A stretch of 64,000 bases of DNA from Hysterium pulicare CBS 123377 (Eukaryota; Ascomycota; Dothideomycetes; Hysteriales; Hysteriaceae). The position numbers and the translations under genes are program-made. This document shows, piece after piece, positions 30,428-64,000 of this stretch (positions are counted from its first letter, which is position 1; each line of letters begins with the position of its first letter). Location of the stretch: the NCBI GenBank assembly GCA_000467715.1, contig AJFK01000509.1:62001-126000 (forward strand), given 5' to 3'. The notes under the pieces were generated by a model, which ran no database searches, had not been told where the DNA came from, and saw only the letters and a list, made by a program, of their open reading frames with translations.

Positions 30428-30640
30428 CTATCTAAGATTGATCTTCCTCCGTTTTGATCTTCCCTGAAGATCGGACCGCTCAGAAGTCGAAATCCAAAGC
30501 CACCTCTCCTCCTTATTCTCAAAGTCATAAGCAACACCGGCATCAGCACGGGCAAACATCTCGTTGTCCCTGCGGCAGCGAGTCGAAGTACTTTTCGTAA
30601 CTGTCGTTGATATACATATCTCAAAATTGAAGTAAGTTTG
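30428..30640 (-). pseudogene. Relic of another metalloprotease-like paralog (C-terminal piece)
   Basis: The minus strand encodes RADAGVAYDFENKEERWLWI, which lines up with VDVGVARLGEGDNWRWI of paralog 1 and the matching part of paralogs 2-4. A neighbouring frame gives YEKYFDSLPQG, similar to the KKWHEL-type segment just before. It lies upstream of the paralog 4 fragment, so it is a separate copy reduced to its C-terminal end. Confidence 0.45.
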
Positions 30641-30985
30641 TTGCAGCAAGAAAGACTGAAGCGAAAGCAAGTATGTTGACCTAAACTCTGCCAGTTTATG
30701 GTGTCGCTCAATCGACTATTTTGTTCTAGACATATCAGTAAGCAATTTCGGAGTTTGAGCGGGCAAGCGCTAGTTGACACAATGGGCTTCTTGATTAGGA
30801 CATGGCAATCTCCAACAATGGAAACTGAATACGGCACAAGGCGGATTGATCTCATGACTATCTACCTAAACGTCAACGCTGTACGGCAATATGCAAAACA
30901 GACATAAAAGTGAACCAAAAAAGCAGTAAGATTCCCATAAATACCCTTGTAACCGAGATAGTAATGAAAAAGGACACTGGCTTTG

Positions 30986-32179
30986 TCATTGCGGACGTGG
31001 CCTTAACCTGGCGCTAGACCAAATCTCCTGCTCTGTTCTCTCGTCCATTTTCCGTTTTCTAGGCGCCCGCCATGAGGGATCCTTCTCGTTCGCCTTCTTC
31101 TCTAGCTTGGCTAGATCTATATCTTCTGCATAGATGGCTAACAGAGTCTTCCTGTTTTCAATTTCCTCATAAAGTTTCTTCTCAGTTTCTCTATGCAGAC
31201 CCTCCACCACCCGTGCATCGCCGATCCATTGCCAAATCCCATCCTCCTCCACAAGACCCATGGTCATATAGGGCACTTTAAAGCCATCTCTTCCATCTAC
31301 TCCCGGCAATCCTTGCGCATCCCATGTCGATTTGAACATGAATTTGTGCGCCCAGGTAGCTTGGATCGGAAACATGATATAGCTGTATAAATACACGGCC
31401 GGGCCTCTCGGTAGGTGTATGACTGGATCAGCCAGGTTGGTGATGACCCCTTCAGTCGGACTTATATACATGTGGACAGAGGCATCAAGAACATTGCATT
31501 CCCAGGATACGCCCATTTCTGGACGCCAATTCTCGGAAAGGGAATGATGTGGCTCCGCCGCATAGACCTGACCCTTGGCTCGAAAATAGAATGCATGAGC
31601 GACTTCGTGAACAAGGGTCGTGGCGAAATTCCAATACCACATCGCATCACGCGATGGAGTGCGATCTGACGCTTTCTGACTGATATATTCAAGCCAGTTG
31701 CTGTGTACGGTAATGTTGTAATTACCGTTTTCACCGGGCTGGAACTGGGCAACGGGCAACCGACCATCCTCCTTGATACCCAAATATGCGAAGAGGATAG
31801 TAGTCGAGGGGGCCATTTGCCGCAGTTCATCTTGCACAATGTCGTAGGCTTCTGGCAAATCTTCGTTTTTATGCTCTTTCAAGTATTCCCTCTCGTCTCT
31901 CTCGTCGTATGCAAGCTCGCCATACCACGTGTGTCTCCACCATTTACTTAGCGATCGCTCTGTAAGATAGAGGCTAGCTACGCGGAGCGCAGGTAGTAAA
32001 GCGTGGTATGCCTGTTCACTAAGGTCCCTGAAAGGCCCTTTGTGGGTGAACAGAGGATGCACTTCATTGTCCAGATCTCCTTGAGCGGGCCCAGAAAGTT
32101 CCACGTCCACCAATCCGTGATCACGCAAATGGCCTTGGATTTGCCACGAAATTGCCAGCATGGTGGGATCCTGCTCCAT
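30986..32179 (-). CDS. Putative zinc metallopeptidase-like protein, paralog 2 (HEVAHAF)
   Basis: A single-exon 397-residue protein. It shares with its neighbours GDLDNEVHPLF (about residues 34-44), LLPALRVASLYLTERSLSKWW, the core TLVHEVAHAFYF (His191, Glu192, His195), and RPEMGVSWE about 26 residues later (Glu221 candidate third ligand). A block ending IHLPRGPAVYLYSY and a FMFKSTWDAQGLPG segment follow, then MTMGLV and WQWIGDARVV. A Lys/Glu-rich tail ends the protein. It lacks the acidic N-terminal extension of paralog 1. No signal peptide or membrane span is seen. The start is the first ATG, and the next Met at residue 7 is possible. The sequence is closest to paralog 3 by eye. Confidence 0.82.
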   Translation of the reverse strand: MEQDPTMLAISWQIQGHLRDHGLVDVELSGPAQGDLDNEVHPLFTHKGPFRDLSEQAYHALLPALRVASLYLTERSLSKWWRHTWYGELAYDERDEREYLKEHKNEDLPEAYDIVQDELRQMAPSTTILFAYLGIKEDGRLPVAQFQPGENGNYNITVHSNWLEYISQKASDRTPSRDAMWYWNFATTLVHEVAHAFYFRAKGQVYAAEPHHSLSENWRPEMGVSWECNVLDASVHMYISPTEGVITNLADPVIHLPRGPAVYLYSYIMFPIQATWAHKFMFKSTWDAQGLPGVDGRDGFKVPYMTMGLVEEDGIWQWIGDARVVEGLHRETEKKLYEEIENRKTLLAIYAEDIDLAKLEKKANEKDPSWRAPRKRKMDERTEQEIWSSARLRPRPQ

Positions 32180-33563
32180 GGTTTACGTATGATTGCGAAA
32201 GTTCTTGTTGAAATTTGTTGCTTAGTTGATGAAAATCGAAGTGGTTGCTACAGTGGATTGGTGGAGGTTGGAAGTGGAGAAAGGAAAGGGATAGGAGTGT
32301 AGTAATACTGCAAGAAAGTAATGATTGTAGTTGTTTCATATTGGTAGTACGTTGTGATTACATTGGTGATTTGGTGTGAATAAGAACAATAGTATACAGT
32401 TTTGGCTTTCAGATGAAACGTGAAGACACGTGATTATACTCACCCCGAACACCTCCCAGCCTCTTTAAGGTGAGTTGTGCGCACTTCGACAACTTTAGTA
32501 AGCCGAATCAGTCCTACACCTAATCATTCCCAGAAACAGTTTGACTTCTTATTCTAGTATCGGGCGGGACGAGCTTTATCTTATACCGGTATGAATGAAG
32601 TCGAGAAAGAGGAGGCACTAAAGACAGTGAGCTAGATTTGAAACAGAAATTGAACATAGCGAGAGAGTTGGGGCAGTCAAGTGTGGTCTGTGTATGCTAT
32701 TCGGATTGTTGCATTGAAGGCTATTCATCTAACGCTGTGTCTTTATAAAGAATGGACTGAAGGCTCAAAAGGATTGACTGGAGTATATCAGCATTTCACG
32801 AGGCCAAGGCACCTTTGATTGGCGCATATCATCAAGTCGATCCTAATATCGAAGTACATCTATACCGATAACCGATTATCAAGTTCGAGAACTGAAATCT
32901 GCTACGTTCAGCCACGCAACTTTTAGGGAAAGAGTCAAATACATGCAGGCAAGATCAAAGAAGTTGATTCCACCAACGCCGGCCGAGCAGCCTTGAGGCG
33001 AGGGTCTCATATCTGACGATCCCAGCTATGATAACCTACCAAGCATCCAAATCCTTCCCGTCGCCCTCATAAGTTATACAGCACGCGAATTTACTTTCAC
33101 ATCTACTGATGATTGTGATCTAAATCACATACGAGCACATCATCTTCAACCCGAATTTATGGATTTGTCATTGATGCTTCGGGTGCCGTGAATTGTCTCC
33201 CATACTACGGCAAAAGAGTATTTCCACGGTTAAGGCGTAGCTGAAGTTCGAAATAGTCCTGGATACAGTACTCCTGGAGCAATCCTAGATCATCGGAGAG
33301 GTCGAATAGAACAAGTTATCTCCTTGTCATCAGGTTATCCATCGCATGCAGAAGGCCAGTATCAACCATAATTTTAGGGCGTGCTGCAAAGGAAGCGCGT
33401 TCGGCATTGTGCTTGAATGTTGTTTGTTATAGGTGAGTTAAGAAGTGCTAGAATAAGTCAACAAAGTAAACTGCGTTTGCTCTCAAAGTTAATCCGAGAA
33501 GGAAGAGAAACTTTGTGAAGTTACTGATGAGCGAAGGAATGAGATGGATTAAACTAGCCGTGA
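32180..33563. other. Intergenic within the paralog cluster
   Basis: No gene is supported over about 1.4 kb between paralogs 2 and 3. The composition is AT-leaning and ORFs are short. Confidence 0.45.
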
Positions 33564-33815
33564 CTAATACCTTATGATGTCACCCTGTACATGATCCGGG
33601 TCCATGAGCTTCCACAGCCCCCAGGGACCTCCTTCCTTGTCTTCGTAAATGACAGATTTCGCAGTGCATGTCAAAGATCGAGCATTGCGAGAAGAGTTGC
33701 GAGATCCGGGCGGTTCAACAAATGGGTTAGGCAACGCGCTTGCGTGTAAAATCTCGCGGCAAATCGAAGGGCTCCATCGAATACGAACGCATTCGAAAAA
33801 CCCGGGTTGTCATCC
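33564..33815 (-). pseudogene. Orphan open frame without start, possible exon or relic
   Basis: The minus strand is open for about 83 codons with no ATG, closing with TAG at 33564-33566. The end reads SVIYEDKEGGPWGLWKLMDP, then DHVQGDIIRY, which looks like coding sequence. A different minus-strand frame near 33850-33870 reads IIAHAF, faintly like the HEIAHAF core of the flanking paralogs. It could be the last exon of an unrecognised gene or decayed paralog material. Confidence 0.25.
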
Positions 33816-34150
33816 ATCCTTCCATTGTATCTTCGTGGAAGGCAGGGGGAAATGCATGAGCTATGATTCAGTCGAATGCAGCCTCCTGGGAATAGTTAGG
33901 AGAGTGTCAATTGGTTGGACTCGTCAGGACTGCTTACTTGGTTTGTAATAAGTTGGGATTGGATGAAGGCAAAGAAATCGGGGCGATAGAGGTGCTTTAT
34001 ACAATCAAAGAACAGAGATTGTTAGTTGCAGAAGGTAGTGAGAACTCTCGCGCAATAGCAGCTGAGATTTTGAATTGCCCTAACTAGTATATCGGACGAA
34101 TAGTCAATCGGAAGCCTGCTCGTCGTTTCGCAAAGTAGAATCATGAAAGC

Positions 34151-35326
34151 CTAAGGATTTGATGAGTTTCGACGAGAGGTTTGTCGAAGAGGATACTTCT
34201 TTCGCACCCCATGCTCCACCGGGTCAGAAGGGTCTGGCTCCCACGGCGAATCAACTTCCATTTCCTTCTTCTCTATCTTTGCGAGCTCTTTTTCCTCCTC
34301 CATATCGAGTGCCATCGTTTTCAGAACTCCAATGCCGTTATAGAGAATTGTCTCCGATCTTTCCACATAGCGAGCGATCTTTTTGGGGTCTGAGGTCCAT
34401 TTCCACTTGTCGTAGGAAAGATATGGATTCCATGATACTAGCCCCATGTTCATATACGGCAATCGAAACCCATCGTTTGGTAAGCCATCGCTTTCCCATG
34501 TTGATTTGAAAAGCATTTTGTGCACCCATAGTGCCTGTACCGGAAATTGAACACAACTCGCTGCTATCATAGGTGGTCCTTTCGGCACATGTACTACTGG
34601 CATATACATGGCGTCTCTGATGCCAAATCGATCACAAATAGTAAAGTTGGTGACGCCGTCGAGAGTAGCGCGCTCCCAAGAATAACCCATTTCCGCTACA
34701 TCCTCAGTAAGAATGGCATATGGCTCCGGTATCAGATGTTTCGCAATCCAATGGAAGGCGTGTGCGACTTCGTGGACCATCGTAACAGCAAACCCCCAGT
34801 AAAATATGGCGTCGGCTGAGGGTGATCGATACGATTTATTCTGCTGGATGTATCTGAGCCATTTAATGTTGAAGCCAATATCATACTGGTGCTTTCCGCG
34901 TCTTCTCCATCGTGCGTGGACCGGACGCTTAAAAGTCTCGAACTTCATGGTGGTCCTATCGGCCAATTTTTGGAGTTGGTTGTGTACGGCCTTGCTAGCT
35001 TCTGCAGATTTCTCCTTCTCGTTCTCCTTCAAATACCACTTGCCGGTTTCGGGGTCTTCGATTAGTTCGCCGTAATAAACGTGTTTCCACCAGCCCATAA
35101 AGGTCTCCCTAGTAAGATATAGAGTCGCCAAACGGAGCGCTGGGAGAAATGCATTGTATGTTTCCTCGCTTTGGTGTCTCCAGGGTCCATCTCGAGCAAA
35201 CAGAGGATGTACATCATTATCTAGATCTCCTTCGGGGTTTCCGCCGAGCTCTACCTCCGTGAAACCATGCTCCCGCAATTTAGGTTCGCAGGCGAGCTTC
35301 AGCCTGTACTCTTCGCAAATTTCCAT
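34151..35326 (-). CDS. Putative zinc metallopeptidase-like protein, paralog 3 (HEVAHAF)
   Basis: A single-exon 391-residue protein with the family layout: GDLDNDVHPLFARDGPW, LPALRLATLYLTRETFMGWW, KHVYYGELIEDP, then the core TMVHEVAHAFHW (His185, Glu186, His189) and VAEMGYSWE about 23 residues downstream (Glu212 candidate ligand). The next block VHVPKGPPMIAASCVQFPVQ and HKMLFKSTWESDGLPNDGF match paralog 2 closely. The tail is Lys/Glu- then Arg-rich. The spacing between HExxH and the EMG motif differs by three residues per paralog (29, 26, 23), suggesting a flexible loop between the metal ligands. No signal peptide is seen. Confidence 0.82.
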   Translation of the reverse strand: MEICEEYRLKLACEPKLREHGFTEVELGGNPEGDLDNDVHPLFARDGPWRHQSEETYNAFLPALRLATLYLTRETFMGWWKHVYYGELIEDPETGKWYLKENEKEKSAEASKAVHNQLQKLADRTTMKFETFKRPVHARWRRRGKHQYDIGFNIKWLRYIQQNKSYRSPSADAIFYWGFAVTMVHEVAHAFHWIAKHLIPEPYAILTEDVAEMGYSWERATLDGVTNFTICDRFGIRDAMYMPVVHVPKGPPMIAASCVQFPVQALWVHKMLFKSTWESDGLPNDGFRLPYMNMGLVSWNPYLSYDKWKWTSDPKKIARYVERSETILYNGIGVLKTMALDMEEEKELAKIEKKEMEVDSPWEPDPSDPVEHGVRKKYPLRQTSRRNSSNP

Positions 35327-38300
35327 AGTCGACGCAGCAGAAAGTGAAAGTCTGGTATAGTGTGTTGTATCGTTAGGTTTGAGTTGTAGAGGTGTGTGGA
35401 GGGAAGCGTTTGATTGTAGGAGTTTCTGGGGAGAGACTCAAGAGACGGTTTTGTAAGCACGAGGTTGGTAGTGATTACATTGTGAAGTAGCTATGTGTGG
35501 CGCTATCATCGACCAGGTCCCACGTGCATTCGTCGGTGATGCTTTTCATACTGTGCACGAACAATGTAGCCCGCTCGTGTGACAAAGTAGCGTCTCCAAA
35601 TATTGGAGGGCGGCGTTTCTAGCATGATTTCGGGGCAGCTGCATTGTATAATAATATTGTCCATCATTTTATCGTGTCCTATAAGAGTTGTCAGAGGAGT
35701 CCAAGAGGGACCTTGTAGAGGCAACTTATACAGCAACAATGTTAGGGCAGAGTAGGTTCCTTCGAGTTTCCATCAATGTCCAAGCTGGCTTTGCCAGACA
35801 CACTCCGATCTCGCTAGAGTAACTTGAAAGCGACAGGAAGCCGCAGAATTCTCGCAGGGACAAGTTTTGTTTGCTTTTTGCTGTTTGGGCTGCAGTATTG
35901 AAACTGTCGCAGTGTACAAACCCTCCATCCTCTTGGATTGCGGTGCGTCAGAATGGTGTGTTTCCCCTGGCTGACTGCAGAATCTTCTAGATACGAAGCC
36001 GACAAATCAGATCTTGATGACGAAGGTCATGTACCGGCCTGGCATGCCTCTATGCTCCGACGACTTGTGGCACCCAGGCGCTGCACCCTTAGAGGATGAG
36101 CAGTGCCACCTTCGTAAAATGGTCCTATAACTTCGATATGACTCCAGATGATGAGGATCGGAGTAAACCAGGCCTCTGTTTTCCATTGCCGACGTATGGG
36201 TATCGAATAGTATTAGGATCGCGCCGGAGCTACCGATCTACCAGTCATCATTGAAGACGAAGGACGACCGACGCCTATAGCGTTTGTAAACTAGAACCTG
36301 CATACAATGGTCGGATTGGACCCAGTCGGTCCGTAAAACACTATGTATCGGAGTAAGCTTGAAGACAGCATTCATAGGTATGCCCATGGACCAGAAAGCG
36401 CCGTAAAGCTGATGCTACCGTATAGATGCGGGTTTAGTCTGGGGATGTTTGGTTAACTGAATAATAGTCTATCCGACGTTTGATAAAACTTGGGCTCATC
36501 CGATACCCCTGTAAGGGACTTAAGTCAGTTACTGTCCTGACACTATTTGCATCTTGGCCAACCGTTCGTTTTTCAATTACTTTTCTTCCGACTTTCTGAT
36601 AGTCCGACAACCTTGAATAGACCGGCTGGATTTGTTTGACGTGTTATACCGACCTTCAATCAATTCCGGAAGTCCGATCCGTATCGTTATACCTGGGCCT
36701 TTAGCCAAAGCTGTTGTACAATGCTTTGAACAAGAGAGGGGATCAGAAGCTGACATTGTACAGATATCCCAACAAATGCCTCCTTGACGGGGGTCTCGAA
36801 GGCCTCAGAGGTACAGCCGGTTCTCGAACCAAATGATCGTGTAGATTTAATGCTTTTGAATCGTCCACGATCAGCTGGACGCCGAACTATCGCAGAGGTT
36901 TTCTTCAATCTATTGACAGGTATTTCATCGGATCCGCATCACCCTGGGGTAGATTTGGTTGTGCTTTCAAATCGTCGGACAACTTGTCCATTCGACTAAG
37001 TCCGGGCGGATGTCAGAATAGCAGTCTAACGTGGTTTCGACCGATGATAGAGCCGTAATCCTTTCATGAACAGAGATATACGATGTGTCCGACGTCGATA
37101 TAGAAGCTGCCTGCGAACCATCGCAACTGTTGGGACCCTCTTTGGCTGGAAGTATGCTGGAGTATCCAAGGCTAATAAATGGAAAAGACCAACGTTTTAT
37201 GTCGAGAGCATACACCTGCTCGGTCTCGCAATACTCAGTGCCTGGATAGGGTAACCAACAGTCACAGCCCAGTTCGGTCGAACCTGCTTCTTCACTCAAC
37301 CAAAGCGAACTATTCGAAGACCTCACTTGGAGTCATTCTAGTAACGGACTTGATAGGACTTGAGATAAGGAAAACGATCGAATTTAGGTTCGATAACCTA
37401 GCGCGATGCAATCGACTGCGGAAAGAAGCTTGAGCAAAGGGCAACTTTTGTCGATTTCAAAACCAATCGCAGCAATGAGAGTTAAACCATATCTTCGCGC
37501 CATCGATAGCGCATAGACGAGGCAAGTTGGGAGTAATGACACTAAGTATAATGACAATAGAGATAACGATCAAGCAGGATTATACTAAGAGCGAACTACC
37601 AGTATTGAGAAGCCAAGGACAGGTACATGCAGAGCGGGCACGCTCTAATTGAGTTGAACGAAAGAGGGCAGATGCTACCTGTGAAGAGTCAGTATCGGTA
37701 TAATCAATCCAGGATCGCGACGCCGTTGGCTACTCACAAGCTTGGCGGAGATGTTCCGACAAATTAATACGACATTATAGAGACTTAGAATGAGACGTCC
37801 GCTCGCTCAACTCAACGATAGAATATAGGATGAAAAGTCGTCCCCTTCTCTAGTATCATCGAACGTGGAGAATATGTCAAGGCTAGCCGTTCAAGTCGAC
37901 GTTGTGTGCCTACCGAACTCGAAGCGCTGGATCCGTATGCCTAGCGCCTTCGGTCGAATTCCTGCTAATGCGCAAGGTCGGAGGCTAAATGAAGGTACGA
38001 GCGGAGGCCAACGTAGGCTTATTGATGCTAGCAGAAGAGAGGAAGGCAGTATCCGGAGGCTAAGCTTTGAGTGTGGAGATGCCGACTAGTTTGCTATCCC
38101 CCAGGTCATTTCGAAGGACGATCCGGGAGGGGGGTCTGACGCGACGTGGGTGACCGTAAATTTTAGCCCGGCGTGAATCATTAAGGGCTCTGTATTGGTT
38201 TTTGTTAGAGAAGGTATGCTGCTAGTAAGCAACTCCTGCGCCCTACCCTAACCAATGAGGCAACTGCATGACGAAAATCTCTAAGGCTGGCTACCCTACT

Positions 38301-47502: not shown

Positions 47503-49020
47503 CTATCCATGTTGAGAAAGCCCTTCATACGCGTCATCGCTGAGCTCGTACCCGCCTCCTTCATCTGTATCCTCAATATCCCCACTTCCCTGCGAATCTA
47601 TCAGGTCATATTCGTCCTCCTCTAGTACACTTTCATCGCTTGAAATCTCATCTTTAGTGCGATCCCCATTGACGGCTTCCCTTTCCCGAAGCTGAGCTCT
47701 CAGACCCTCGAGAATGATGTTCATCCTAGACTTCAGATCCGAATTCCAAACCTGCAAGATCTGGCTTTCCATTTCTTGAATCATGCTCCGCAGTTCCTTG
47801 ATTGCGTTCTCATTCTCATCTTCCTCCTCGTCTTCAGGGCTGTCTCTCCCAGGCATTTCCTCAACCTCAATGCCATTACCAAAGAACTTCGCAAAGTCCT
47901 CCGCCATCTTCTTGTTAGTAATCGCAAACACCACTTCTTCAACTCCTTCCCACTTCTCAACCTCCTCGCCTCCTCCTTTCCCCTTCCTATTCTCATCTCC
48001 AAGCAAAACCTTCCTCCAAAGCCCCGCAACCTCCGCAGCAGGATTCCCATACGCTCCACACCCCCAAGCCCCAAGCACTAACCTCTTCACCCCCTTCCTA
48101 CAACAGATCCTCAACACCCCCCTCATCTTCATCTCCACCACCACTCTATCCTTTCCATCCACATACCTCCCAACCCCATCCCTCTCCTCCACCTCCGGAA
48201 ACCTCAACATACCCGCACTAACAACGTCCACCCACCACCTCTCACTTACCCCCAACTCTCCGCTTCCTTCTCCTAAGGGGTCGGCATTCCGGAATATGAG
48301 AACGTCGGACGTCCATGCGCCGCCGATTTCTGGGAGCCGGTAGAAGGAGTCTTTGAGGGAGGGGAGGAGAGTTGTGCGGGCGCAGAGGAATTCTTCTTGG
48401 GATGTGGCGCCGTTGAGAACGCCGCCGCCGGGACGGAGAGGAGAGGCCATGTTTAGGATGCAGGTGTTTGTCGTGGGCTTTTTGGAGGGTTTTTGGGTAA
48501 GTGAGGTTTGAGATGGGGGAAATGTGAGGTGGTGAGATGCTGTTAGGGTATCGGTATTAAGGATGCGAATTATAATTGGCTTTTTTCGGGTGTGCTCGTG
48601 CGGTTTTGTTGGTGATGATGGAGCGATAGGAACTTCATGCGCTGATAACGAAATCGAGGACGATTTATCCCTCCTCCTTCTACCCTGACCTTTTCGCTTC
48701 GTATACTCCTCTTCCTCGTAAATCCCCTTTCCACCCCTCACAACGCTCTCCTCGTCTTCCTCTTTCTTCGCCCTTCGTTTCCCTTTCCTTTTCCCTAATT
48801 CCCTTTCACCCACCACATCCCCCTCCAACCCCTCACCTCCCCACTTGAGAGGTGCCGGATCAACAATAAGTTCACTCCCCTCAACCCCCTTCCTCGCCCT
48901 CGCATTCGAAGCTAGCAGAGCTGGAATGGTCTTATTCACGATGGCACGTGCTTGCTTAGCGCGGATGTCTTTGCGGATGGAGGGGGGTGCGAGGCCTTGG
49001 CTTTGTTCTGTGCGGCCCAT
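47503..49020 (-). CDS. Microbial-type PARG / DUF2263 (TIGR02452) protein
   Basis: A single-exon 505-residue protein. The central domain carries the bacterial-type poly(ADP-ribose) glycohydrolase signature NMASPLRPGGGVLNGATSQE E: Gly198-200 and Gln208-Glu209-Glu210 match GGG-x(6-8)-QEE, the catalytic loop of macrodomain PARGs. Further family blocks are CARTTLLPSLKDSFYRLPEI, TSDVLIFRN, WWVDVVSAGMLRFP and LVLGAWGCGAYGNPAAEVAG LW, then VEEVVFAI. The N-terminal 145 residues are basic and low-complexity, and the C-terminal 130 residues are strongly acidic, so nuclear location is plausible. The predicted reaction is removal of ADP-ribose from PARylated proteins. The gap at the PAAEVA position and charge-rich arms are typical of fungal members. 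Confidence 0.9.
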   Translation of the reverse strand: MGRTEQSQGLAPPSIRKDIRAKQARAIVNKTIPALLASNARARKGVEGSELIVDPAPLKWGGEGLEGDVVGERELGKRKGKRRAKKEEDEESVVRGGKGIYEEEEYTKRKGQGRRRRDKSSSISLSAHEVPIAPSSPTKPHEHTRKKPIIIRILNTDTLTASHHLTFPPSQTSLTQKPSKKPTTNTCILNMASPLRPGGGVLNGATSQEEFLCARTTLLPSLKDSFYRLPEIGGAWTSDVLIFRNADPLGEGSGELGVSERWWVDVVSAGMLRFPEVEERDGVGRYVDGKDRVVVEMKMRGVLRICCRKGVKRLVLGAWGCGAYGNPAAEVAGLWRKVLLGDENRKGKGGGEEVEKWEGVEEVVFAITNKKMAEDFAKFFGNGIEVEEMPGRDSPEDEEEDENENAIKELRSMIQEMESQILQVWNSDLKSRMNIILEGLRAQLREREAVNGDRTKDEISSDESVLEEDEYDLIDSQGSGDIEDTDEGGGYELSDDAYEGLSQHG

Positions 49021-50166
49021 TGTGTGGTTTTACTCTTGATTTGGAGTTGTGAAGAGTGAGGCATCTGAGGAAGGAAATGAGAAGGTGCAGTGATAGTGGT
49101 GATAGATGAGTGGCGTAACGAGTCAGAATCTGGAGATCGATGGGTTGAGATGAGTCATGGATTTCCGGATTGGGTGGGCTGAGTATAGACTGCACAATTT
49201 TTGGAGTCGAAGCTGAAAGGAGGGTTTGAAGATTCTTAGGATATGCTTTGATTATTGATAGCTTTTTTATAATCTATATGTTATTTATAGTATTCTATAA
49301 GTCCTCCCTTTTCCGAACTATCCCAGACTAAGCACGCCGTCTATCATATACACACGCAACAACAGCAACGTCCGCCAACATTTTGTGCTCTTAATATGAC
49401 GCTTGGATGCGTATGTGTCTGTTCGACGACCACAGCCCTATCTCTAAAAACTGATTGAAACAGGGAGGATGCAAAAGCTGTTGCATGAAGACATCATCGA
49501 CGTTCAGGACTTGTTTGGCGATTACGATTTCGATTTCGATTTCAAAAATACTTGTTTCTACAATATGCTCCTAAAATTGGTGTATGGTGGACGCCCGTAG
49601 AAGTCCCGTTGGAGGCCTCATCTTACGGGCCGCGTTCTAAGCACGGAGCATCTGCTTAAGTCGCAGTTGCGGAACGCTGCCTCAGAAAAGATCACGATCA
49701 TGTTTTGGCATCCAGTCAACCTTGAAAATAGTCCCAGATTTGTCCAATAGCAACTCCTTGTTGAAGAGAGTCGACGGACTTTGCAAAGGGCCTTGAAACC
49801 ATTGATGACGATCTCCACTGGCCCATTGCGTTGACTATTTACGTTGTCGCGTGCGCTGCATTTAAATCTAGCACTAACACTATTCAGATGTTTGTTAATC
49901 ACCTTTTTTTTGAGTAGGATTTAAGGTAGAAAGTAGGTTGAATATTGGAGCATACCTTAGATAGCGGTGGAAGAAACTCAAATGTTTGACTTATGCCAAA
50001 CCTAACCAAATAATGATCCATAAGCGGTCGCAAGCCGTTTGGTCTTGGTACTACGCCGTGAATCGCGTTTAGCATCTCGAACTTGGCCCGGTTGTTTCTT
50101 AGGTTCTCGAGCCCAATTCTGGGTCTCGGGGAAAGAGGTAAATCAAGTATCCATAGTCCTTCTTAT
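49021..50166. other. Intergenic, nothing recognised
   Basis: AT-rich in the centre near 49250-49310. ORFs on both strands are short and motif-free. It separates the PARG gene start from the 3' end of the DnaJ gene. Confidence 0.5.
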
Positions 50167-55342: not shown

Positions 55343-57727
55343 TCATGAACGGGATTCCGGATGTTGCTCAGGATGTTGCTCGGGATGTTGCTCAGGATGT
55401 TGCTCGGGATGTTGCTCAGGATGTTGCTCAGGATACTCCTCGGGGTGTGGTTGCAAATGTTGGTCAGGATACTCCTCAGCGTGTGGTTGCAAATGCTGCT
55501 CAGGATGGATCTCCGAAAGCGGCGCTAGAGTAGAGAGAGTATTCTCCTCCGAAGGTGGTTCGTAAATCTCGCCATGCCCCAATGCCCACGTTTCCAGCTG
55601 CTCGGTCGTTGGGTCCGAAATTGCATCCGAGACGGCGGTGAGGGCGCCGCTCGGAATGGTGCTATTTCCGCTAGGACCGCGACTGTGGACGGGATCAAAA
55701 TGTTGGCCTTGCACTTGGAACATGCCGTCATCGCCTGGCAATTCGTGCACGTTGGCGAGCATCGGTGAGGTTGGGGTCTTTCGCCCTGTTGCACCACGGG
55801 AGCCGGATGAGTTCCTTGTTGTTCGTCTCTTATGACGGTCATCGAAGTACTCAGCCATTTGGCTATTCATGCTTCGTGGGGTTGAGGCCATGCCTGAATC
55901 GGAGGGTGGAGATTCCAGCTCTACGACCTCAGGCGGGCTCTCCAGTTCTGAAGGTGGTATCTCGTGGATCGGTGGGAATGGGACGTGGTCCTTTTGGTCC
56001 CGACCGCCGTAGTATCCCGTCATGGAGGCGCCGGGTGAGCTGGGAGGATTCGAGTCGAGTTCGCTTGCGCGTCGTTTTCTGCTAACCTCGTCGCCTGCTA
56101 GAGTAGTGTCATAGTCGCTAGACTCAATATTTCCCTCTTTGGCCTTTTTATCTCGGCCACGCCATCTCCAGAAGCAGAAGCCGCCTAGAACAAGGAGCAG
56201 AGCAACTATACCAATAGCTATGCCAACAATTGCAGCTGGCGAGAGACCTGACCCTCCGTGCCCTGGGTGTTGTGTTGTGGCTGGAGGTGGCGGTTCCACG
56301 TAGTTCGCTGAGTGTATCGTCACGATATGAGGTGCTGGCATTGGATCTGAGAAGTTCGCCGGGGCTACCATGAAATTATTGTGTTCGTAATCGACCACAA
56401 TGTAGGCCTCCTGGAGAAATGCACGGCCGAGGACATATTCACCAGAGGACGAGCGTCTGATTGGGAAGTATTTGGTGGCATTTGTGTAGATAGGAAATGA
56501 TGCCTCTAAGTCAAAAGCTGAGTATGGAAGGACTATAGATGTGAAGTTGTTGCTAGGATTTTCACTGCTTCCAATCTTGAACGATACTGTAGCGTTCTGG
56601 TCTATATTTTTCGAGTGTGAAGTAGCATTGACGATGTATAGTGCAGTGGACTTGTCGTAGGTTAACTGGAACACATCGGCGAATTGGTCGCATATCGCCT
56701 GAGGTAGCCATAGGTAGGGCAGAGTGGAGTCAATGACGGCAGAAAACCCGCCCGTGGGCTGGGTTAGGGAAACCACGTTCGACTGGTCATTGGGTGTAAC
56801 TTCGATTGATTGAACACCGACAACGAGTGAATTATTGGTGGTAGGCATATCTATCGTAACGCCATGGGTATTAAATCGGGATTGATCGTAACCTCCTAAG
56901 ACTAAGCTTGCTAGAACACCTTTGCTGTTGTTACCTAGAAATCATTAGCAACCGCAATAATGACTTGAAATGACCATTGCATATTAATCCCTTGATCGAT
57001 GCTAACACATATTCATCGACAAGAGGCGCGGTCTAGAAACTGTACATGAGACAATGAAGTAGTACATATGGACATCAAGCCAAGCAAATGCAATAGACAG
57101 TAACTCACGATAATAGGCGCCTGCCGTGTAACCATACGACAAGCTTGGTATTTGATTTGAAGCGTTGTAATCGGCAAGAAAGGTGTTTTTGGGTCCCCCT
57201 CCATAATCCACTGGCCGGACCGCTAAACCAAAAGAACCCATGAAGAAGTCCTTGGTATTGATCTCGGCGACCAGTTGCTGGGGTAGCTGAAGAGAGTTTT
57301 TTGAGTCGGGTCCTAGACCAACGGTGTCAAAGCCGTAGGAGCCATTTGGATTCGAGTCCGGGGTTAGATCCGGGAAAAAGGGTAGGGACGGCAAGTTGTA
57401 GAGGCCGGCTTCCTGCCAGCTTGTGGATGAAGAGGCTTCAAATCCAAGATCTTGTCTTGACTGGAATGGCAGAACTCCACGATTAACGGCGCACTTTGTC
57501 TGGTCTGGATATGTACACCAATTGGCTTGCAGAGGGACCAGAATTACAGACCCAGAGGTGGAGATGAGGATCTTGAAGTTTTGTCCAGTAATAGATTGGC
57601 CATCGGAGCCAACATTGATAACGAACGTCGACCAGGAGCCATCGTTGCCGTCAAAGTCTCCACTAGGAGCAAATGAGTAGGGTAACAAGAGAGTGGTCGT
57701 GTTCTGGGTTGAGTTTTGGAGGGACAT
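55343..57727 (-). CDS. Membrane-anchored pepsin-like protein, probably catalytically dead
   Basis: Two exons (57727-57109, 56934-55343) give 736 residues. The first 420 residues have the A1 aspartic protease fold: FDGNDGSWSTFVINVGSDGQ, then ILISTSGSVILVP where active enzymes have DTGS, NPNGSYGFDTVGLGPDSKNS, the NNSKGVLASLVLGGYDQSRF block (created across the intron), and the second site AVIDSTLPYLWLP. The first catalytic Asp is replaced by Ser, so proteolysis is unlikely; this subgroup is widespread in ascomycetes. One membrane span (AAIVGIAIGIVALLLVLGGF) follows, with a WRWRGRDKK stop-transfer and about 270 Ser/Pro-rich cytoplasmic residues that end in EQHP repeats. No signal peptide is visible before MSLQNSTQ, so a 5' exon may be missing. 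A sensor or adhesion role is inference. Confidence 0.82.
55359..55502. repeat. Coding minisatellite (12-bp and 36-bp tandem units)
   Basis: Plus-strand GGATGTTGCTCA/G repeats six times in register at 55359-55430, then two 36-bp units at 55431-55502 beginning GGATACTCCTC. In the minus-strand gene they encode EQHP repeats and EEYP-QHLQPH repeats. All lengths are multiples of three, so copy number can change without frame loss. Confidence 0.9.
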
Positions 57728-59290
57728 GGTGGAGGAGAAGCATGGCGGATTTGGAGGGAAAAAGAGAGAGCATGCAAGCAGGAGTTAAGGCCTGCGGTCA
57801 CATAGCTGGAGACGGAAGCATAGCCTAGCTTTGGGGGCAGGATGATAGCTCAAGAAAATGCGGCTGGAATGCTAGAACAGATGAATAAAAGGAATGCTAT
57901 AAAGCACGTAAGCTAGCATATCACATGTGGAAGAGGCAGCGGGAGCTGTAGGCTGAGCAGCTATCTAATTCTGGACTGTGTGTCGAGCCACAAGTTTGCC
58001 CCGCCCGCATCCCCGAAGGGTGGGGTTTGGAGCTCATAGGCACGATGTGCAGGTTGTGGGAGGCACAAGCCATATCACCTGCGGCTGGTCTCTGCCGTGA
58101 GTGGATTGCGATGGGCTGCCGCGTTGGAGGCACAGCGATGGCGAGGTGGGGATGCATATGTGGTGTGGAGAGGAATATCGCTCAGTAGTGGCGGGCACAT
58201 GTCGTGAACTCAGGTGCGCCGGACATGGCTTAGCCTGGTTTGCTGGTCTAGCTCATTGGCGGCAAGAGTCAGGGATCGTTCCGTCCCGATGGTGAGGCCT
58301 TGCCAAGCCCCGTGTGTTCTCTCGCCGCTCGGCAAACCGACCTCTTACACATCATCGGGCAGCATCAACGTGTGAATCTGATCCAACCATCAGCCCCCAA
58401 TATCTCTGTGGCCCCCAAAGAAACACGGGCAGCCATAATAAGCCCGGAGCTGCATCCATCCTCCACGTCAACACCTTCGTAACAATGCACCCAGCTAGCG
58501 TTCTCGGGTTGCTGCATCAACTCGACTTCGCAGCCAAGCAGCCTTCTCCAACTCACCTCGGATGCCTTCGTCCCCCACGTCCATAGTGCTGCTCGGGATG
58601 CTCGTTCTTCTGGGTTCGTCACGTCAGCTAAACACCCCCGCTAGCCTTCTCAACGTCTGGCGGGGTCATGGGCAACGCCCCTGCCAATCTCCCTACCAGG
58701 TCTAGTGAGGCTGTATGTCTGCCCTCATCGAGCTCTGGGCCTATTCATCAATGCCATCGAGAACCAATTCGCCTTGTGTAAGCTACATGCTCCTCCCTGC
58801 CGGACCTCCGCTTTGGCGCCCATTCCCGAGGATGGGACGGTATCATCGTCCTCATGGCTGAAGCCTTTGCCAAAGGCGGCCAGGTTCCGCTCAAGGCAAC
58901 TCAATTGGTCACTGCTTTTTGCACCTCTTCCAACTCTTCCAGCTCTTCCAGCTCTTGGAGCCTTGTCATGCCTTTCATTGCTCTTATACCCTGCGCTTTG
59001 CTCTTCGTTGTTTAGGTTTGGAGACCCAATTCATCTCTCCAGCCTTGTGTAAGTTAACTGTCTCTTTTAATCGTGTGTAGCCTTGTGTCAATCCCCCTGG
59101 CCTTGAGTGTCAAGCCTCGATCTCTGTTTACTCTCTGTGTCACCCAGGGCGTAATTCCTGTACAACTGTCGAACCAATTCATAAGTGTCCATATCGATTG
59201 CACAATTTCCTCCATGCGCCTCATCACGTGTTTCAGACTAACCCAGCTCATCTTCAGTCTTCGGCCCCCTCGGCGACTCGTTAAGCCGAC
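57728..59290. other. Divergent intergenic region
   Basis: 1.56 kb between the pepsin-like gene and the micro-exon gene. It is fairly GC-rich with several short ORFs, none convincing. The stretch 59180-59280 has pyrimidine-rich parts that may be leader sequence. Confidence 0.5.
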
Positions 59291-62200
59291 ATGGGCATTC
59301 TTTCGTTCCCGATGCTTTGTATTCTGACAATTCTCGCCTTTCTCGGCGGAGTGACGGGCAACAACGTTTCCATAGGAACCCTACAGCCTTCTACCTCATC
59401 GTCCTGGATACCGACATCAGCACCCCCTCCAACTTGTGCAGCACAAACAATCACTCTAGAGCACACAGTCACATGTACCGAAACACAAACCTCGACATGC
59501 ACTGAATATCGTACGAAAACGTCCACGTGTACTGAATATAAGACGAAAACGACAACATGTACCGAGTATTTCTGGAATACAACCACCGTCTACGCAACTC
59601 TGACCGATTATCGGACGAGCATCTTCACTACGGTTTCTACTGATCTAGAATTCAGTACTAAATACGAGACTGTTCCAACTATCATTTACTCGGTATGTCG
59701 CCTCACCTGAGCTCCTTTATCAGGATCTCGATGCTGACATCTCAGACCGATTACTTAACCAGCATTTTGACTACTGTTTCCACAGACCTGGAATATAGTA
59801 CAAAATATGAGACTGTTCCAACCGTTATTTATTCGGTAAGTCGCTCTATCCATGCTCTTTGCTAAAGGCATGAATGCTGATATCTCAGACCGATTATGTG
59901 ACAAGCGTTTTGACCACTGTTTCCACGGATCTAGAATATAGCTATATCTACTCCACTGAGGTAAGCTATATCTATTTCTAAGCATTTGCAAATCGGTTAT
60001 ATATTTCATGGGCCTAAGAAGCTGTGCATGCCCGCTCTTAGCAAGTTGAGCGTCGTATGTCGAGCTTATCCGAGCTCTGGAATAACACTTGAAGGGCCAA
60101 CTCCGCATTGAGGGCATCACTTATATCATGCCTTTCTCGTCCAAGATTTGGACTAGGAGACAATAGGCTTATACCTAGAGTCATGAAATACTCTACATAC
60201 GGTGCTTTCATTCTGTCTTACCCATGCTAACTTCTCTAGACCGACATTAAAGTATGTTCCAGGCCTCCGATTATGGTCTCAAGGCCCCTCACCATCTAAC
60301 TCGACCTCTAGACGGATTTCAAAACGGTACCATCATACATCTACTCGACCGAGGTATGCGTCAACCACAATACCCTCTCTATTTTAAATTTACATGCTAA
60401 CTTTCTAAGACTGATATTGAAGTATGTCCCAAATCCTTCAACTATGAAACTACGCCCTCTAACCTAATATTCAGACCGATTTCAAGACGGTACCCTCATA
60501 TATTTACTCGACTGAGGTATGCGTCATTTACACCACCTAACATGGCTCTTCTTTAAGCAAGCTAACTTTTATAGACTGATATTGAAGTATGCATCAGACC
60601 TCATAACTACAGAAATCGCTTCCCTAACTCAGTTCTTAGACGGATTTCGTGACGGTGCCATCATATGTTTATTCGACTGAGGTACGTATTGATTACAGAA
60701 CTTACTATGCTAAGTTTCTACACATGCTGACTCTTCTCAGACTGATATTGAAGTATGTTCATCCTTGAAACCACGATGTTTTCTCAACTAATGTACTCTT
60801 GAGACGGACTTCGTGACAGTGTCCTCCTATATCTATTCTACCGAGGTTTGAGTCTCTTATCCTCATGCATGATAGTAATTGGCTAAGAACACGACATAGA
60901 TTGATACTGTTCCAACGTACATTTATTCGACAGAGGTATTTGTTGACACTCATTTCGGGAATTTCCGCTGTGCTAATATGTCTTCAAGACGGACTTCGTG
61001 ACTGTTTCATCCTATGTGTATTCCACCGAGGTACGGATCCCCGACTTTCGATATAGAAGATGAAGCTCAGTTTTAACCACAGATCGATACGGTCCCCACG
61101 TACATTTACTCCACAGAGGTATTTGTTATAACCCGTTTCGAAGTTCTAACCGTACTAAAATGTATCCAAGACCGACTTCGTGACTGTCCCATCATATGTA
61201 TTTTCTACCGAGGTACGGGGCTCCTCCATTCGCTGCGGAATTTTAAACTCACTTGTAGCCACAGATCGATACGGTCCCAACGTATATATATTCCACAGAG
61301 GTAGTTTTTAGCTCAATTCGGAATTCTGACCTTGCTAATTTACCTTTAGACGGATTTTGTGACCGTCCCATCATACGTCTATTCTACGGAGGTAAGCGTT
61401 ATGTACTGTCTTACAACCAATGAGAATGAATGTGAGCTAACTTATTGCCACAGATCGATTATTCCACAGAGGTACTCCTTCAATCAAATTGCGTTCTGAG
61501 TCCCTACTAATGTGTCACGAAGACGGATTATGTGACGGTGCCGTCGTACATTTACTCTACCGAGGTATTTCACCTACTTAAAGTTGCCAAACCAATGCGA
61601 AGGCTGATTCGGTATATAGATTGATACTGTTCCAACGTATATTTACTCAACAGAGGTAAAGAAACCCACTATCCTTGTAATTGCCACGCTAAAACGTCTT
61701 CAGATTAATACTGTTCCTACATATATCACGGAGGTCAGTTATTCTCATAGAATAGTGTCACGACGATCATGACTCATCAACGTCTTGCCTACCAATTCCA
61801 CCAAATTCATCCATATAACATATAAGTTTGGGTTCGGATGCAAAGACTAATTTACATTGCAGACTATCCCCACGACCATTGAAGAAACTATCACCACAGC
61901 TTTATCGTTCTTTTACACCACGACATCGATTAGCGTGACAACTTATTCGACGACACTGACGCAAATCATAATCTACACGACAACGGCTTCAGGAAGTATC
62001 GTGACCGTCGTTTCGACAAGCTTTGTGCCAACCGTAATAACGTCGACTTTGACGCAAACGCTCACGATAGCAACGCCGAGTCCCAGCCCATTTACTATCG
62101 AGACACCAGGACCTACCTCTGTTCTTACGATCGAAACTCCAGGCCCTACCTCGATCGAAACGGTCGAAACACCTGGCCCAACTTCCTTTATTACGATAAC

Positions 62201-64000
62201 TAGCATTTCTGTGACAACTCTCACGCTTTCCGCTTCAACGATTACGACGACTCAAACGGTAACGGAATCTGGATCGACTCGCACGATTATCAGTACTTCA
62301 GTCGTTCCTCCGACTACGATAGTATCAACGCTGACCTCCCTGATCACGACGCCCGGACCAACTTCCTTCATCACTCTTACGAGCACTTTTGTAACGACTT
62401 TAACGCTATCGGGTTCGACAGTCACGACTACTCAAACTATAACTGAATCTGGATCGACCCGCACGGTCATTTCTACTTCAGTCGCCCCTCCAACCACGAT
62501 ATTGTCTACTCTGACTTCCGTCGTTACGACCCCGGGCCCCATTTCTATCCAAACCGTCCCGGGCCCGACTTCCTTCATTACCCTTACTAGCACTTTTGTC
62601 ACAACTTTAACTCTATCCGCATCCACGATCACCACGACTCAAACTCTGACTGAATCTGGATCGACTCGCACGGTTATTTCCACTTCAGTCGTTCCTCCAA
62701 GCACTATCACATCTACTCTGATTTCACTAATTACGACCCCTGGCCCCACTTCCATTCAGACTGTCCCCGGCCCGACGTCCTTCGTAACAGTTTTGAGTAC
62801 TTTTGTAACAACACTAATTGTACCTCCGTCCACGATCACGACTGTACAGACTATTACGCAGTCGGGCTCAACGCAAACAATCACTACGACTTCAGTTGTC
62901 CCGCCGATTACAATTACATCGTCTTTCACCTCCCTAGTGATTATTCCTGGGCCAACAAGCATATTTACTAGCCCTGTCACACTTCCAGGGTCTACTAGGA
63001 CTATCATTCAGACAACCGTGACCACATTTTTTGTAACTCAAACTCTACCCCCGCAGACGATACCCGTCACATCGACAGTAACCGAAGGGGGCTCAACTCA
63101 AACGATCACTACGATTTCGATAGTCTCAGCGACCACGATCGTGTCCATATCGGTGTCGACTTTGACGATTACTTCTCTTTCCGTTGAAACGCTTCCAGTC
63201 ACGCAGGTCATCACTCAACTCTTACCTACTACGATTGTCTCTGTTGAGACGGTCGCTCCTAGTGGACCTGGCTCTTCTGGCTCTTCTGGAGTCGGCTCTA
63301 TTGGAACTCAGGGCTCTACTGGAGTCGGCTCTATTGGAACTCAGGGCTCTACTGGAATTGGCTCGACTGGAATTGGCTCGACTGGAATTGGCTCGACTGG
63401 ACCTAGCACTACTGGACCCAGCTCTTCTGGAATCGCCTCCTCTATATCATGTTCAAGTGCCTGCCATGTTGATGTGACTGCTACTGAGGTTGCCTATCCC
63501 GGCAGTGTCTCAGTGATCACTGTTTCTGTTCCAATCACGAAAGTAATTGTTACGGTATCGTCGCTCCCTGGTGGTGGCTTCGCTACAATTGGCTCAGCGA
63601 CTACCACTCAGCCGTTACCCAGCCAAACGTCTTTCTTAACATGGGTCTTTGATTCAGTGACCATGTAAGTTTACTACAAAATCAGGCTTTGCAGATAGGT
63701 TGACATTCCACAGGACATGGCCGACTACCTATATCGCATACGAGCAATTCAGTCACATCACCGTCCGGCCCGTAGCCACTGGATGTGATACATCAACCGG
63801 AACGCTACGTCTACCAGCCACAACCGACCCATCATCTTTCGTCTTTCCGACAGCGAGCGTCACTGAGCCAGGGTCGCCCCCGACGGCTCTCATCAGTTAT
63901 CTCAACGGTTTATCCACAGTGATCGAACAGCTTGGCGGCCCAATTGGGTCATCCTGCGATCCCATTATTCGGGGGACCCACACTGCAAGTACCAGTACCC
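59291..64000 (+). CDS. Secreted Ser/Thr-rich wall or adhesin-like protein with micro-exon array (3' end beyond window)
   Basis: At least 23 exons, about 1076 residues in view, no stop before the right edge. Exon 1 (59291-59692) encodes a signal peptide (MGILSFPMLCILTILAFLGG), then three TCTEYKTKT-type repeats with one Cys each. Exon 2 (59746-59835) and exon 3 (59889-59960) carry a 30- and a 24-residue TDYxTSxLTTVSTDLEY unit. Eighteen micro-exons follow (60240-61733, separate entry). Exon 22 (61863-63664) encodes about 600 residues of Thr/Ser/Val repeats with ESGSTRTxISTS and PGPTSF motifs, then Gly-Ser-Thr repeats. Exon 23 starts at 63714 after a phase-2 intron; all earlier introns are phase 0. 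The composition suggests a heavily O-mannosylated extracellular stalk. Family not recognised; adhesin or wall protein is inference from composition. Confidence 0.82.
59485..59575 (+). repeat. 30-bp coding repeats in exon 1
   Basis: Three units encoding TSTCTEYRTK, TSTCTEYKTK and TTTCTEY. Each has one Cys, which could allow cross-linking; this is inference. Confidence 0.75.
59961..60239 (+). other. Long intron before the micro-exon array
   Basis: At 279 nt this intron is about five times longer than its neighbours. It ends TGCTAACTTCTCTAG, so the acceptor is good. No extra exon with the TD... pattern was found in it by eye; it may hold decayed units. Confidence 0.5.
60240..61733 (+). repeat. 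Tandem micro-exon array (18 exons of 12-42 nt)
   Basis: Exons, all flanked by AG and GT and all in phase 0: 60240-60251, 60312-60353, 60410-60421, 60475-60516, 60575-60586, 60640-60681, 60741-60752, 60804-60845, 60900-60935, 60989-61030, 61083-61118, 61171-61212, 61265-61300, 61350-61391, 61454-61471, 61523-61564, 61620-61655, 61704-61733. They alternate between a short type (TDIK/TDIE, 12 nt, four copies; IDTVPTYIYSTE, 36 nt, four copies; IDYSTE, 18 nt; INTVPTYITE, 30 nt) and a 42-nt type (TDFVTVPSYVYSTE and variants, eight copies). Introns inside the array are 48-62 nt, and many have a TGCTAAC/TGCTGAC/ACTAAT branch-like site before the acceptor. The 12-nt exons are the least certain, as skipping them would also keep frame. 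Confidence 0.85.
62160..63240 (+). repeat. Coding Ser/Thr repeats in exon 22
   Basis: Four clear and about two weak copies of a unit of roughly 180-210 bp. Each unit encodes PGPTSFIT, FVTTLTLSAST, TTTQT, ESGSTRT and ISTSVVPP in order. Copies drift toward the 3' end (QSGSTQT, GGSTQT). Confidence 0.85.
63283..63420 (+). repeat. Gly-Ser-Thr coding microrepeats
   Basis: Two 33-bp units encoding GVGSIGTQGST are followed by three 15-bp units encoding GIGST (GGCTCGACTGGAATT). All units are multiples of three. Confidence 0.85.

What the first reader, a model, noticed from the sequence alone, without database searches (positions are those of the whole stretch)
60240..61733. Array of 18 consecutive micro-exons in one secreted-protein gene
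About 1.5 kb holds 18 exons of only 12-42 nt, each bounded by AG and GT, all phase 0, encoding TDFVTVPSYVYSTE- and IDTVPTYIYSTE-like peptides. Introns here are longer than the exons. Micro-exon genes are known in schistosomes and short exons occur elsewhere, but I know of no described fungal array like this. The conserved splice sites, branch-like motifs and peptide show selection on both splicing and protein.
Basis: seen in the sequence. Interest (0 to 1): 0.95.

Follow-up and report, generated by a model that had tools for sequence, protein, structure and literature searches.

The report
Array of 18 fungal micro-exons
One gene for a probable secreted surface protein in a fungus seems to be pieced together from 18 tiny, repeated, frame-neutral exons whose peptides selection has preserved, a layout best known from blood flukes and aphids.

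Summary
Window 60240-61733 carries 18 candidate exons (four of 12 nt, eight of 42, four of 36, one of 18, one of 30), each flanked by AG and GT, all phase 0, with 17 introns of 48-62 nt between them. They lie between repeat exons (90 and 72 nt) and a 1.8 kb Thr/Ser-rich exon of one gene (ATG 59291, cut off by the window end). A rule-based exon-chain search gives 18 links here, 3 in bases 1-59000, at most 6 in 60 shuffles.

Selection on the peptide is plain in the 16 copies compared: eight 42-nt exons differ at 212 third but 66 first and second codon positions (28 pairs); four 36-nt exons have 31 synonymous and no amino-acid differences. Intron bodies are on average hardly more alike than shuffled ones.

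Best reading: an exon-intron unit was duplicated repeatedly, mostly long ago, and is spliced into a repetitive stalk of a surface glycoprotein. Five non-YAG acceptors and frame-neutral exons leave regulated skipping open. There is no RNA evidence, and no fungal genome was available. Ten paper searches, some seen only in part, listed no fungal array; isolated fungal micro-exons are published.

The parts
59291..59692 (+). Exon 1: start codon, signal-peptide-like N terminus, Cys-containing CTEYRTKTSTCTEYKTKT repeats, first 30-aa TDYRTS...TIIYS repeat
   Evidence: model; 30-nt tandem repeat 59487-59569; signal peptide judged by eye
59746..59835 (+). Exon 2 (90 nt): second 30-aa repeat, phase 0
   Evidence: dN/dS 0.025 against the exon 1 copy
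59889..59960 (+). Exon 3 (72 nt): shortened repeat TDYVTSVLTTVSTDLEYSYIYSTE, resembles both the long repeats and the micro-exons
   Evidence: best match of the class A profile outside the array, though with a negative score
60240..60251 (+). Exon 4, short class, TDIK (12 nt)
60312..60353 (+). Exon 5, class A, TDFKTVPSYIYSTE (42 nt)
60410..60421 (+). Exon 6, short class, TDIE; acceptor AAG
60475..60516 (+). Exon 7, class A, TDFKTVPSYIYSTE
60575..60586 (+). Exon 8, short class, TDIE
60640..60681 (+). Exon 9, class A, TDFVTVPSYVYSTE
60741..60752 (+). Exon 10, short class, TDIE
60804..60845 (+). Exon 11, class A, TDFVTVSSYIYSTE; poorest splice sites by eye (GAG acceptor, GTTTGA donor)
60900..60935 (+). 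Exon 12, class B, IDTVPTYIYSTE (36 nt)
60989..61030 (+). Exon 13, class A, TDFVTVSSYVYSTE; acceptor AAG
61083..61118 (+). Exon 14, class B, IDTVPTYIYSTE
61171..61212 (+). Exon 15, class A, TDFVTVPSYVFSTE; acceptor AAG
   Evidence: its exact 3' edge is not in the chains or 41
61265..61300 (+). Exon 16, class B, IDTVPTYIYSTE
   Evidence: its exact 5' edge is not in the chains or 41
61350..61391 (+). Exon 17, class A, TDFVTVPSYVYSTE
61454..61471 (+). Exon 18, class B copy shorter by 18 nt in frame, IDYSTE (18 nt)
   Evidence: left out of class statistics
61523..61564 (+). Exon 19, class A, TDYVTVPSYIYSTE; acceptor AAG
61620..61655 (+). Exon 20, class B, IDTVPTYIYSTE
   Evidence: its exact 3' edge is not in the chains or 41
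61704..61733 (+). Exon 21, class B copy shorter by 6 nt in frame, INTVPTYITE (30 nt)
   Evidence: left out of class statistics; its exact 3' edge is not in the chains or 41
61863..63664 (+). Exon 22: long Thr/Ser-rich region with intronless 207-nt (69-aa) repeats and a GSTGIGSTG-like linker; phase 0 entry
63714..64000 (+). Exon 23, entered in phase 2, open to the end of the window (gene is cut off)

Best explanation
The region is a tandem array of exon-intron units inside one gene for a probable secreted, Thr/Ser-rich cell-wall or surface glycoprotein. A unit made of two small exons (a class A exon preceded by a short or a class B exon) with two ordinary ~50-60 nt introns was duplicated repeatedly by slippage or unequal recombination. 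Because both edges of every unit are phase 0, each duplication added a frame-neutral module. Most copies are old: their introns have drifted almost beyond recognition, yet splice edges and encoded peptide were kept. The pre-mRNA is spliced mainly by intron definition (short introns recognised as units, so tiny exons are no obstacle), and the array yields 192 residues of repeats (18-residue short+A, then 26-residue B+A units) that lengthen a stalk or spacer between the Cys-containing N terminus and the long Thr-rich region. SHOWN from sequence: the possible exon structure, frame, copy relationships and purifying selection on the peptide. INFERRED: transcription and splicing, intron definition, secretion, stalk function, mode of duplication.
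For: Model with 18 phase-0 micro-exons and short introns of even size. Chain search far above shuffles and the rest of the window. Unspliced reading impossible; 21 of 22 introns break the frame if retained. Class A: 40/26/212 differences at codon positions 1/2/3 over 28 pairs, dN/dS 0.033; class B: 0/0/31 over 6 pairs. The correct frame gives mean pairwise peptide identity 0.86 (A) and 1.00 (B), the other two frames 0.37-0.39 and 0.53. Mean identity of intron bodies within a class is 0.68-0.73 against 0.70-0.71 for shuffled ones (gapped, short pieces). Class A units recur at 163-185 nt spacing. Outside the array the best match to the class A profile in the window is exon 3 (score -7.1), and the exon 1 repeat comes third, fitting a common origin. 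Residues 189-398, the array plus 18 residues of exon 22, are 24% Thr, without Cys. Intron-containing repeat expansion is published for a Cryptococcus gene (PMC2395259, passages).
Against: No RNA or protein evidence of any kind. Five of 18 acceptors are not YAG, exon 11 has two poor sites, four of 18 acceptors lack CTRAY. No relative in another genome could be examined. No domain match supports the surface role (Pfam best E 0.1, below cut-off). A stalk function rests on composition alone. Exons 18 and 21 are shorter copies and could be on their way out. Some neighbours are closer than the rest (exons 6, 8 and 10 identical, introns after exons 5 and 7 at 0.86), so not all duplications are old.
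Confidence: 0.68

Rival explanations
1. Micro-exon gene in the schistosome sense: the symmetric exons are skipped or included in varying sets, so that one gene makes many lengths and surfaces of a secreted protein.
For: All 18 exons are 3n and phase 0, so any subset keeps the frame. Splice-site quality varies from exon to exon, with AAG or GAG acceptors at exons 6, 11, 13, 15 and 19, as one might expect of exons that can be skipped. Schistosome MEGs encode secreted or exposed proteins from short symmetric exons (PMC5825161, passages).
Against: Phase symmetry follows from tandem duplication alone. The class A exons with poor acceptors (11, 13, 15, 19: pN 0.075-0.084) are as constrained as the other A exons (0.055-0.096). 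The copies encode nearly the same peptide, so skipping changes length more than sequence. Folding of the array in two halves showed no unusual RNA structure (z 0.56 and 1.17). No transcript data.
Confidence: 0.22
2. Introns were inserted many times into a pre-existing intronless peptide repeat (introner-like gain) rather than copied with the exons.
For: The same gene has an intronless peptide repeat in exon 22; fungal introner-like elements are known (recalled, no call).
Against: Intron bodies are on average hardly more alike than shuffled sequence, and classes are no closer to each other (0.68-0.72). Junctions fall at the same codon in every copy of a class, which copying explains with one event per unit.
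Confidence: 0.05
3. A decaying minisatellite or chance pattern: the array is an intron or pseudogene part, and the real transcript splices 59960 to 61863.
For: Exon 3 and exon 22 are both phase 0 at the join, so skipping the whole array keeps the frame. Some splice sites are poor.
Against: Third-position excess with p = 1.2e-9, no amino-acid change among four class B copies, chain of 18 against at most 6 in 60 shuffles.
Confidence: 0.05

Closest known systems
Schistosome micro-exon genes (MEGs)
   Same: Many short symmetric exons in a row, secreted or exposed product (PMC5825161, passages read: short symmetric exons of 6-36 bp, about 80% of the coding region)
   Different: Here 8 of 18 exons are 42 nt, the array is 576 of 3229 coding bases in the window (18%), exons are recognisable copies of one another, and alternative splicing is untested; no homology to any MEG is claimed or was tested
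Aphid bicycle genes (and the megacycle gene)
   Different: Bicycle exons are phase 2 with CYC motifs; here phase 0, no Cys in the array, tandem peptide repeats
Cryptococcus CNN00420, intron gain by repeat expansion
   Same: Fungal gene in which repeats that include exon ends and a whole intron (about 107 nt) were duplicated (PMC2395259, passages read)
   Different: Two gains whose introns are identical to others in the gene; the passages read mention no micro-exons; here 18 small exons, with most introns near the shuffled level
Isolated fungal micro-exons: Trichoderma Xlr2, Fusarium CYP621A
   Same: Show that filamentous fungi splice tiny exons (PMC11121469 and PMC12940212, abstracts and passages; a 1-nt exon with RNA reads). 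The passages also mention micro-exons tested in Schizosaccharomyces pombe, exons of 2-10 residues in fungi, and several in Phanerochaete P450 genes
   Different: No tandem array of copies is described in the passages read; intracellular products
SP7-like effectors of arbuscular mycorrhizal fungi
   Same: Secreted fungal proteins with tandem repeats and conserved gene structure (PMC11333574, passages)
   Different: The passages describe one conserved intron before the first repeat, not one exon per repeat; hydrophilic nuclear effectors

Membership tests
Schistosome-type micro-exon gene | Short exons that are multiples of three and symmetric, in series | tested here: met
   18 of 18 are 3n, phase 0 in the model
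Schistosome-type micro-exon gene | Exons 6-36 bp making up about 80% of the coding region (definition from PMC5825161) | tested here: not met
   10 of 18 at most 36 nt; array is 576 of 3229 coding bases in the window; the gene continues beyond it
Schistosome-type micro-exon gene | Protein variation by alternative splicing | not testable with these tools
   no RNA data
Schistosome-type micro-exon gene | Secreted or exposed product | tested here: inconclusive
   Hydrophobic start MGILSFPMLCILTILAFLGGVTG and Thr/Ser-rich composition; no predictor run, C terminus outside the window
Aphid bicycle gene | Internal exons almost all phase 2, CYC motifs | tested here: not met
   phase 0 throughout to exon 22; no Cys in the array
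Tandem exon-intron duplication array | Successive exons are copies of one another in register | tested here: met
Tandem exon-intron duplication array | Introns descend from common copies too | tested here: inconclusive
   similar unit length and residual likeness of some neighbours (whole introns up to 0.86), but bodies near the shuffled level on average
Introner-like intron gain | Introns alike in sequence while exons differ | tested here: not met
Fungal Ser/Thr-rich cell-wall glycoprotein | Signal peptide, long Thr/Ser-rich repeats, GPI anchor | tested here: inconclusive
   first two by eye and composition; the gene is cut off at 64000; no Pfam match above cut-off for the spliced protein, no NCBIfam match for exons 1 and 22, no PDB match for the last 168 residues

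The most novel reading that the evidence does not exclude
A fungal counterpart of micro-exon genes: the frame-neutral array is a splicing-controlled ruler or shuffler that lets one gene display surface stalks of many lengths and repeat orders, with weak acceptors (exons 6, 11, 13, 15, 19) as switch points, having arisen independently of the fluke and aphid systems by duplication of exon-intron units.
Probability: 0.22. Interest if true: 0.85.

Novelty: new variant of a known kind. Interest (0 to 1): 0.66.

Why it matters
If RNA bears it out, this is a run of 18 consecutive micro-exons in a fungus, where the papers found here report only isolated ones. It would be a natural test of how a spliceosome that works by intron definition copes with 12-nt exons in series, of what 19 splicing events in and around one array cost in yield, and of whether symmetric exon arrays in secreted proteins evolved repeatedly (flukes, aphids, fungi). 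It also suggests that gene finders may misannotate such loci.

Tried and rejected
Own genome: none is held. Relatives: a degenerate pattern of the shared peptide plus GT gave 0 stretches in viral contigs and 0 in genome contigs; without the GT it gave one viral contigs stretch (L001), whose translation shows one YIYSTE-like stretch with a stop beside it among unrelated sequence, taken as chance. The last 168 residues matched no relative in genome contigs (147 pattern stretches, none confirmed) or viral contigs (24, none confirmed). These are collections of prokaryotes and viruses, so their silence says nothing about fungi.

Domains: no Pfam match above cut-off for the spliced protein (only gp37_trimer, E 0.1), no NCBIfam match for exons 22 and 1, no PDB match for the last 168 residues.

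RIP (repeat-induced mutation) as the source of divergence: not settled. The array has TpA/ApT 1.03 and (CA+TG)/(AC+GT) 0.82, exon 22 1.03 and 0.79, against 0.72 and 1.22 for the window; by thresholds that I recall, the first two lie in the RIP-like range. But Thr (ACN) and Val (GTN) codons alone push the second index that way, and 114 of 243 third-position differences in classes A and B are transversions, which RIP does not make. So RIP cannot be the main source; a part is not excluded.

Special RNA structure: two 751-nt halves fold no better than shuffles. Hidden micro-exons in the longer introns (279 nt, 129 nt): no profile match beyond shuffles, p 0.15-0.86 in six tests.

A local splice-site profile: the harvest from the rest of the window gave only 10 introns of doubtful quality (acceptor -3: A3, T3, C3, G1), too few and too noisy to say how unusual the AAG and GAG acceptors are; taken at face value, with 4 of 10 non-YAG, it does not show them to be rare. 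That YAG is the fungal norm is recalled.

Paper searches whose hit list was seen in part: 20 of 26; 20 of 40; 12 of 17; 15 of 853. PMC8786786 (passages) was read for repeat proteins of mycorrhizal fungi; its genes have one or two introns and did not bear on this.

Structure prediction was not tried: a spliced protein is not letter for letter in the window, and a single Thr-rich exon without relatives would fold poorly.

Exons 18 and 21 were left out of all class statistics because their lengths differ, so those cover 16 of 18 micro-exons; I assigned the classes from the peptides. The composition figures for the array include the first 18 residues of exon 22.

Full report
What is there. The region was read directly and a splicing model was built by hand-set edges. 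A gene starts with ATG at 59291 and runs past the end of the window. Exon 1 (402 nt) begins with a hydrophobic stretch that looks like a signal peptide, continues with Cys-containing CTEY repeats, and ends with a 30-residue repeat. Exon 2 (90 nt) is a second copy of that repeat and exon 3 (72 nt) a shortened one. Then come 18 small exons, 60240-61733, and after them a 1802-nt Thr/Ser-rich exon 22 and the open exon 23. Every junction up to exon 22 is phase 0; exon 22 to 23 is not.

Three classes of small exon. Short (TDIK/TDIE, 12 nt; exons 4, 6, 8, 10), A (TDFVTVPSYVYSTE-like, 42 nt; 5, 7, 9, 11, 13, 15, 17, 19) and B (IDTVPTYIYSTE, 36 nt; 12, 14, 16, 20), plus two shorter B-like copies (18: IDYSTE, 18 nt; 21: INTVPTYITE, 30 nt). 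Short and A alternate first, then B and A. Class A units recur every 163-185 nt. Exon length differences in the model are all multiples of three (partly by construction, since I sought 3n exons), while the 17 intron lengths (48-62 nt) fall evenly on all residues mod 3 (5, 6, 6).

Not chance. The degenerate DNA pattern for the shared V-P-x-Y-x-x-S-T-E peptide has 10 matches in the window, all in the array, and none in 100 shuffles. A chain search by splice rules and open frame, without peptide information, gives chains of 7, 4 and 2 here under strict rules and only single exons among the other chains listed (six per strand); 100 shuffles reach 3 at most. Relaxed rules give 18 here, 3 in bases 1-59000 and at most 6 in 60 shuffles; 12 of the 18 have the model's exact edges, since the search maximises number and not quality. 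I set both rule sets after seeing the region.

Coding. Without splicing the stretch 59961-61862 holds 29, 34 and 30 stops in its three frames, and of 22 introns only one could be retained in frame. Among the eight A exons (28 pairs) differences at codon positions 1, 2, 3 are 40, 26, 212, dN/dS 0.033; among four B exons (6 pairs) 0, 0, 31; among four short exons (6 pairs) 3, 0, 6. Variable columns: 23 of 30 third positions, 7 of 60 others, Fisher p = 1.2e-9; the copies are related by descent, so the p-value is a guide only. Mean peptide identity in the two wrong frames falls to 0.37-0.53. For comparison, the intronless 207-nt repeats of exon 22 have dN/dS 0.116 (two of four copies) and 0.139 (three of four), and the 30-residue exon repeat 0.025. 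So the A and B micro-exons are more constrained than the exon 22 repeats and about as constrained as the 30-residue repeat, and no A copy stands out as relaxed (pN 0.055-0.096 each). With pS about 0.72 the A copies are near saturation, hence mostly old, and wholesale recent homogenisation is unlikely. Exceptions: exons 6, 8 and 10 are identical over 12 nt and some neighbouring introns are closer.

Splicing. In ungapped columns anchored at the exon edges, intron positions +7..+26 agree at 0.24-0.33, the donor hexamer at 0.67-0.92 and NAG at 0.72-0.78. Part of this is simply that GT and AG were required to call the exons. The branch region (-20..-11) agrees at 0.50 in class A, above its flanks (0.26 and 0.35), at 0.43 in B (0.38 and 0.36), and at 0.42 in the short class, not above its flanks (0.44 and 0.50). 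CTRAY lies before 14 of 18 exons; the other four (12, 14, 16, 21) have looser matches by eye. Results against easy splicing: acceptors AAG at exons 6, 13, 15 and 19, GAG at exon 11, donor GTTTGA at exon 11. How unusual this is in this genome could not be established: a harvest of 10 introns elsewhere was too noisy and itself held 4 non-YAG acceptors.

Origin. Intron bodies of the same class are on average hardly more alike than shuffled ones (0.68, 0.73, 0.73 and 0.68 against 0.70, 0.71, 0.70 and 0.70; short gapped pieces, a weak test), though some neighbours retain likeness (whole introns after exons 5 and 7: 0.86). This argues against recent duplication of most units and against introner-like insertion of one intron sequence. 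A class A profile run over the whole window finds, after the A copies themselves and four B exons, exon 3 as next best (-7.1), then an unrelated place (6179, -12.4), then the exon 1 repeat (-13.7). I read this as a common origin: a 30-residue exon was shortened and split, then the exon-intron pair multiplied. That history is inference. Published precedent for the step is Cryptococcus CNN00420, where a repeat including a whole intron expanded (PMC2395259, passages).

Function. The array encodes 192 residues; with 18 residues of exon 22 it is 24% Thr, 13% Tyr, 11% Ser, has 36 acidic and 3 basic residues and no Cys. With the Thr-rich exon 22 this looks like the stalk of a fungal surface glycoprotein. 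No Pfam model above cut-off matches the spliced protein, no NCBIfam model exons 1 and 22, no solved structure the last 168 residues. Whether exons are skipped is open: symmetry permits any subset, and uneven splice sites hint at it, but equal constraint on the compared copies says that they are in the protein often enough for selection to see them. No unusual RNA structure was found.

Literature. Ten searches of an open-access library showed no paper that by title or abstract start describes a fungal micro-exon array; four of the lists were seen in part (20 of 26, 20 of 40, 12 of 17, 15 of 853), and most papers of subscription journals are missing from the library. [quoted passage not shown] a 2026 paper reports a 1-nt exon in Fusarium with RNA reads and mentions further small exons in fungi (PMC12940212, abstract and passages). 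Schistosome MEGs (PMC5825161, passages) and aphid bicycle genes (PMC9168663, passages) are the nearest architectures; both fail a tested membership feature.

Limits. The window's other genes (HET domain, Chs7, porphobilinogen deaminase, aspartyl protease) fit a filamentous ascomycete in my judgement; Leotiomycetes was not tested.

Noticed in passing
window 27989-35437, - strand: Paralogous ORFs 27989-29542, 30986-32182 and 34151-35437 (43% and 30% identity in the two comparisons made), with another ORF, 29794-30414, between them that was not compared. The three share VHE(V/I)AHAF, an HExxH zinc-peptidase-like motif, yet no Pfam family passes its cut-off (SprT-like E 0.11 for one). Possibly an undescribed metallopeptidase-like family.
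   Followed up: partly
window 62172-62972: Four intronless 207-nt (69-aa) repeats in exon 22 of the same gene, the others 61-80% identical to the reference copy, an internal example of repeat growth without introns.
   Followed up: partly
window 59487-59569: 30-nt tandem repeat coding for Cys-containing STCTEYRTKT-like units near the N terminus of the same gene.
   Followed up: no
window 55343-57784, - strand: Two ORFs (55343-56941 and 57002-57784) that look like one aspartyl protease gene; the first matches Pfam Asp, has a hydrophobic stretch that by eye could span a membrane, and ends in a 12-nt tandem repeat (55359-55506, EHPEQHPEQ). The second had no Pfam match.
   Followed up: no
window 59961-60239: The intron before the array is 279 nt, about five times the array introns; no hidden micro-exon copy was detected in it.
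   Followed up: partly
window 47503-49029, - strand: ORF with a microbial-type PARG catalytic domain (Pfam E 5e-15) and charged low-complexity flanks.
   Followed up: no
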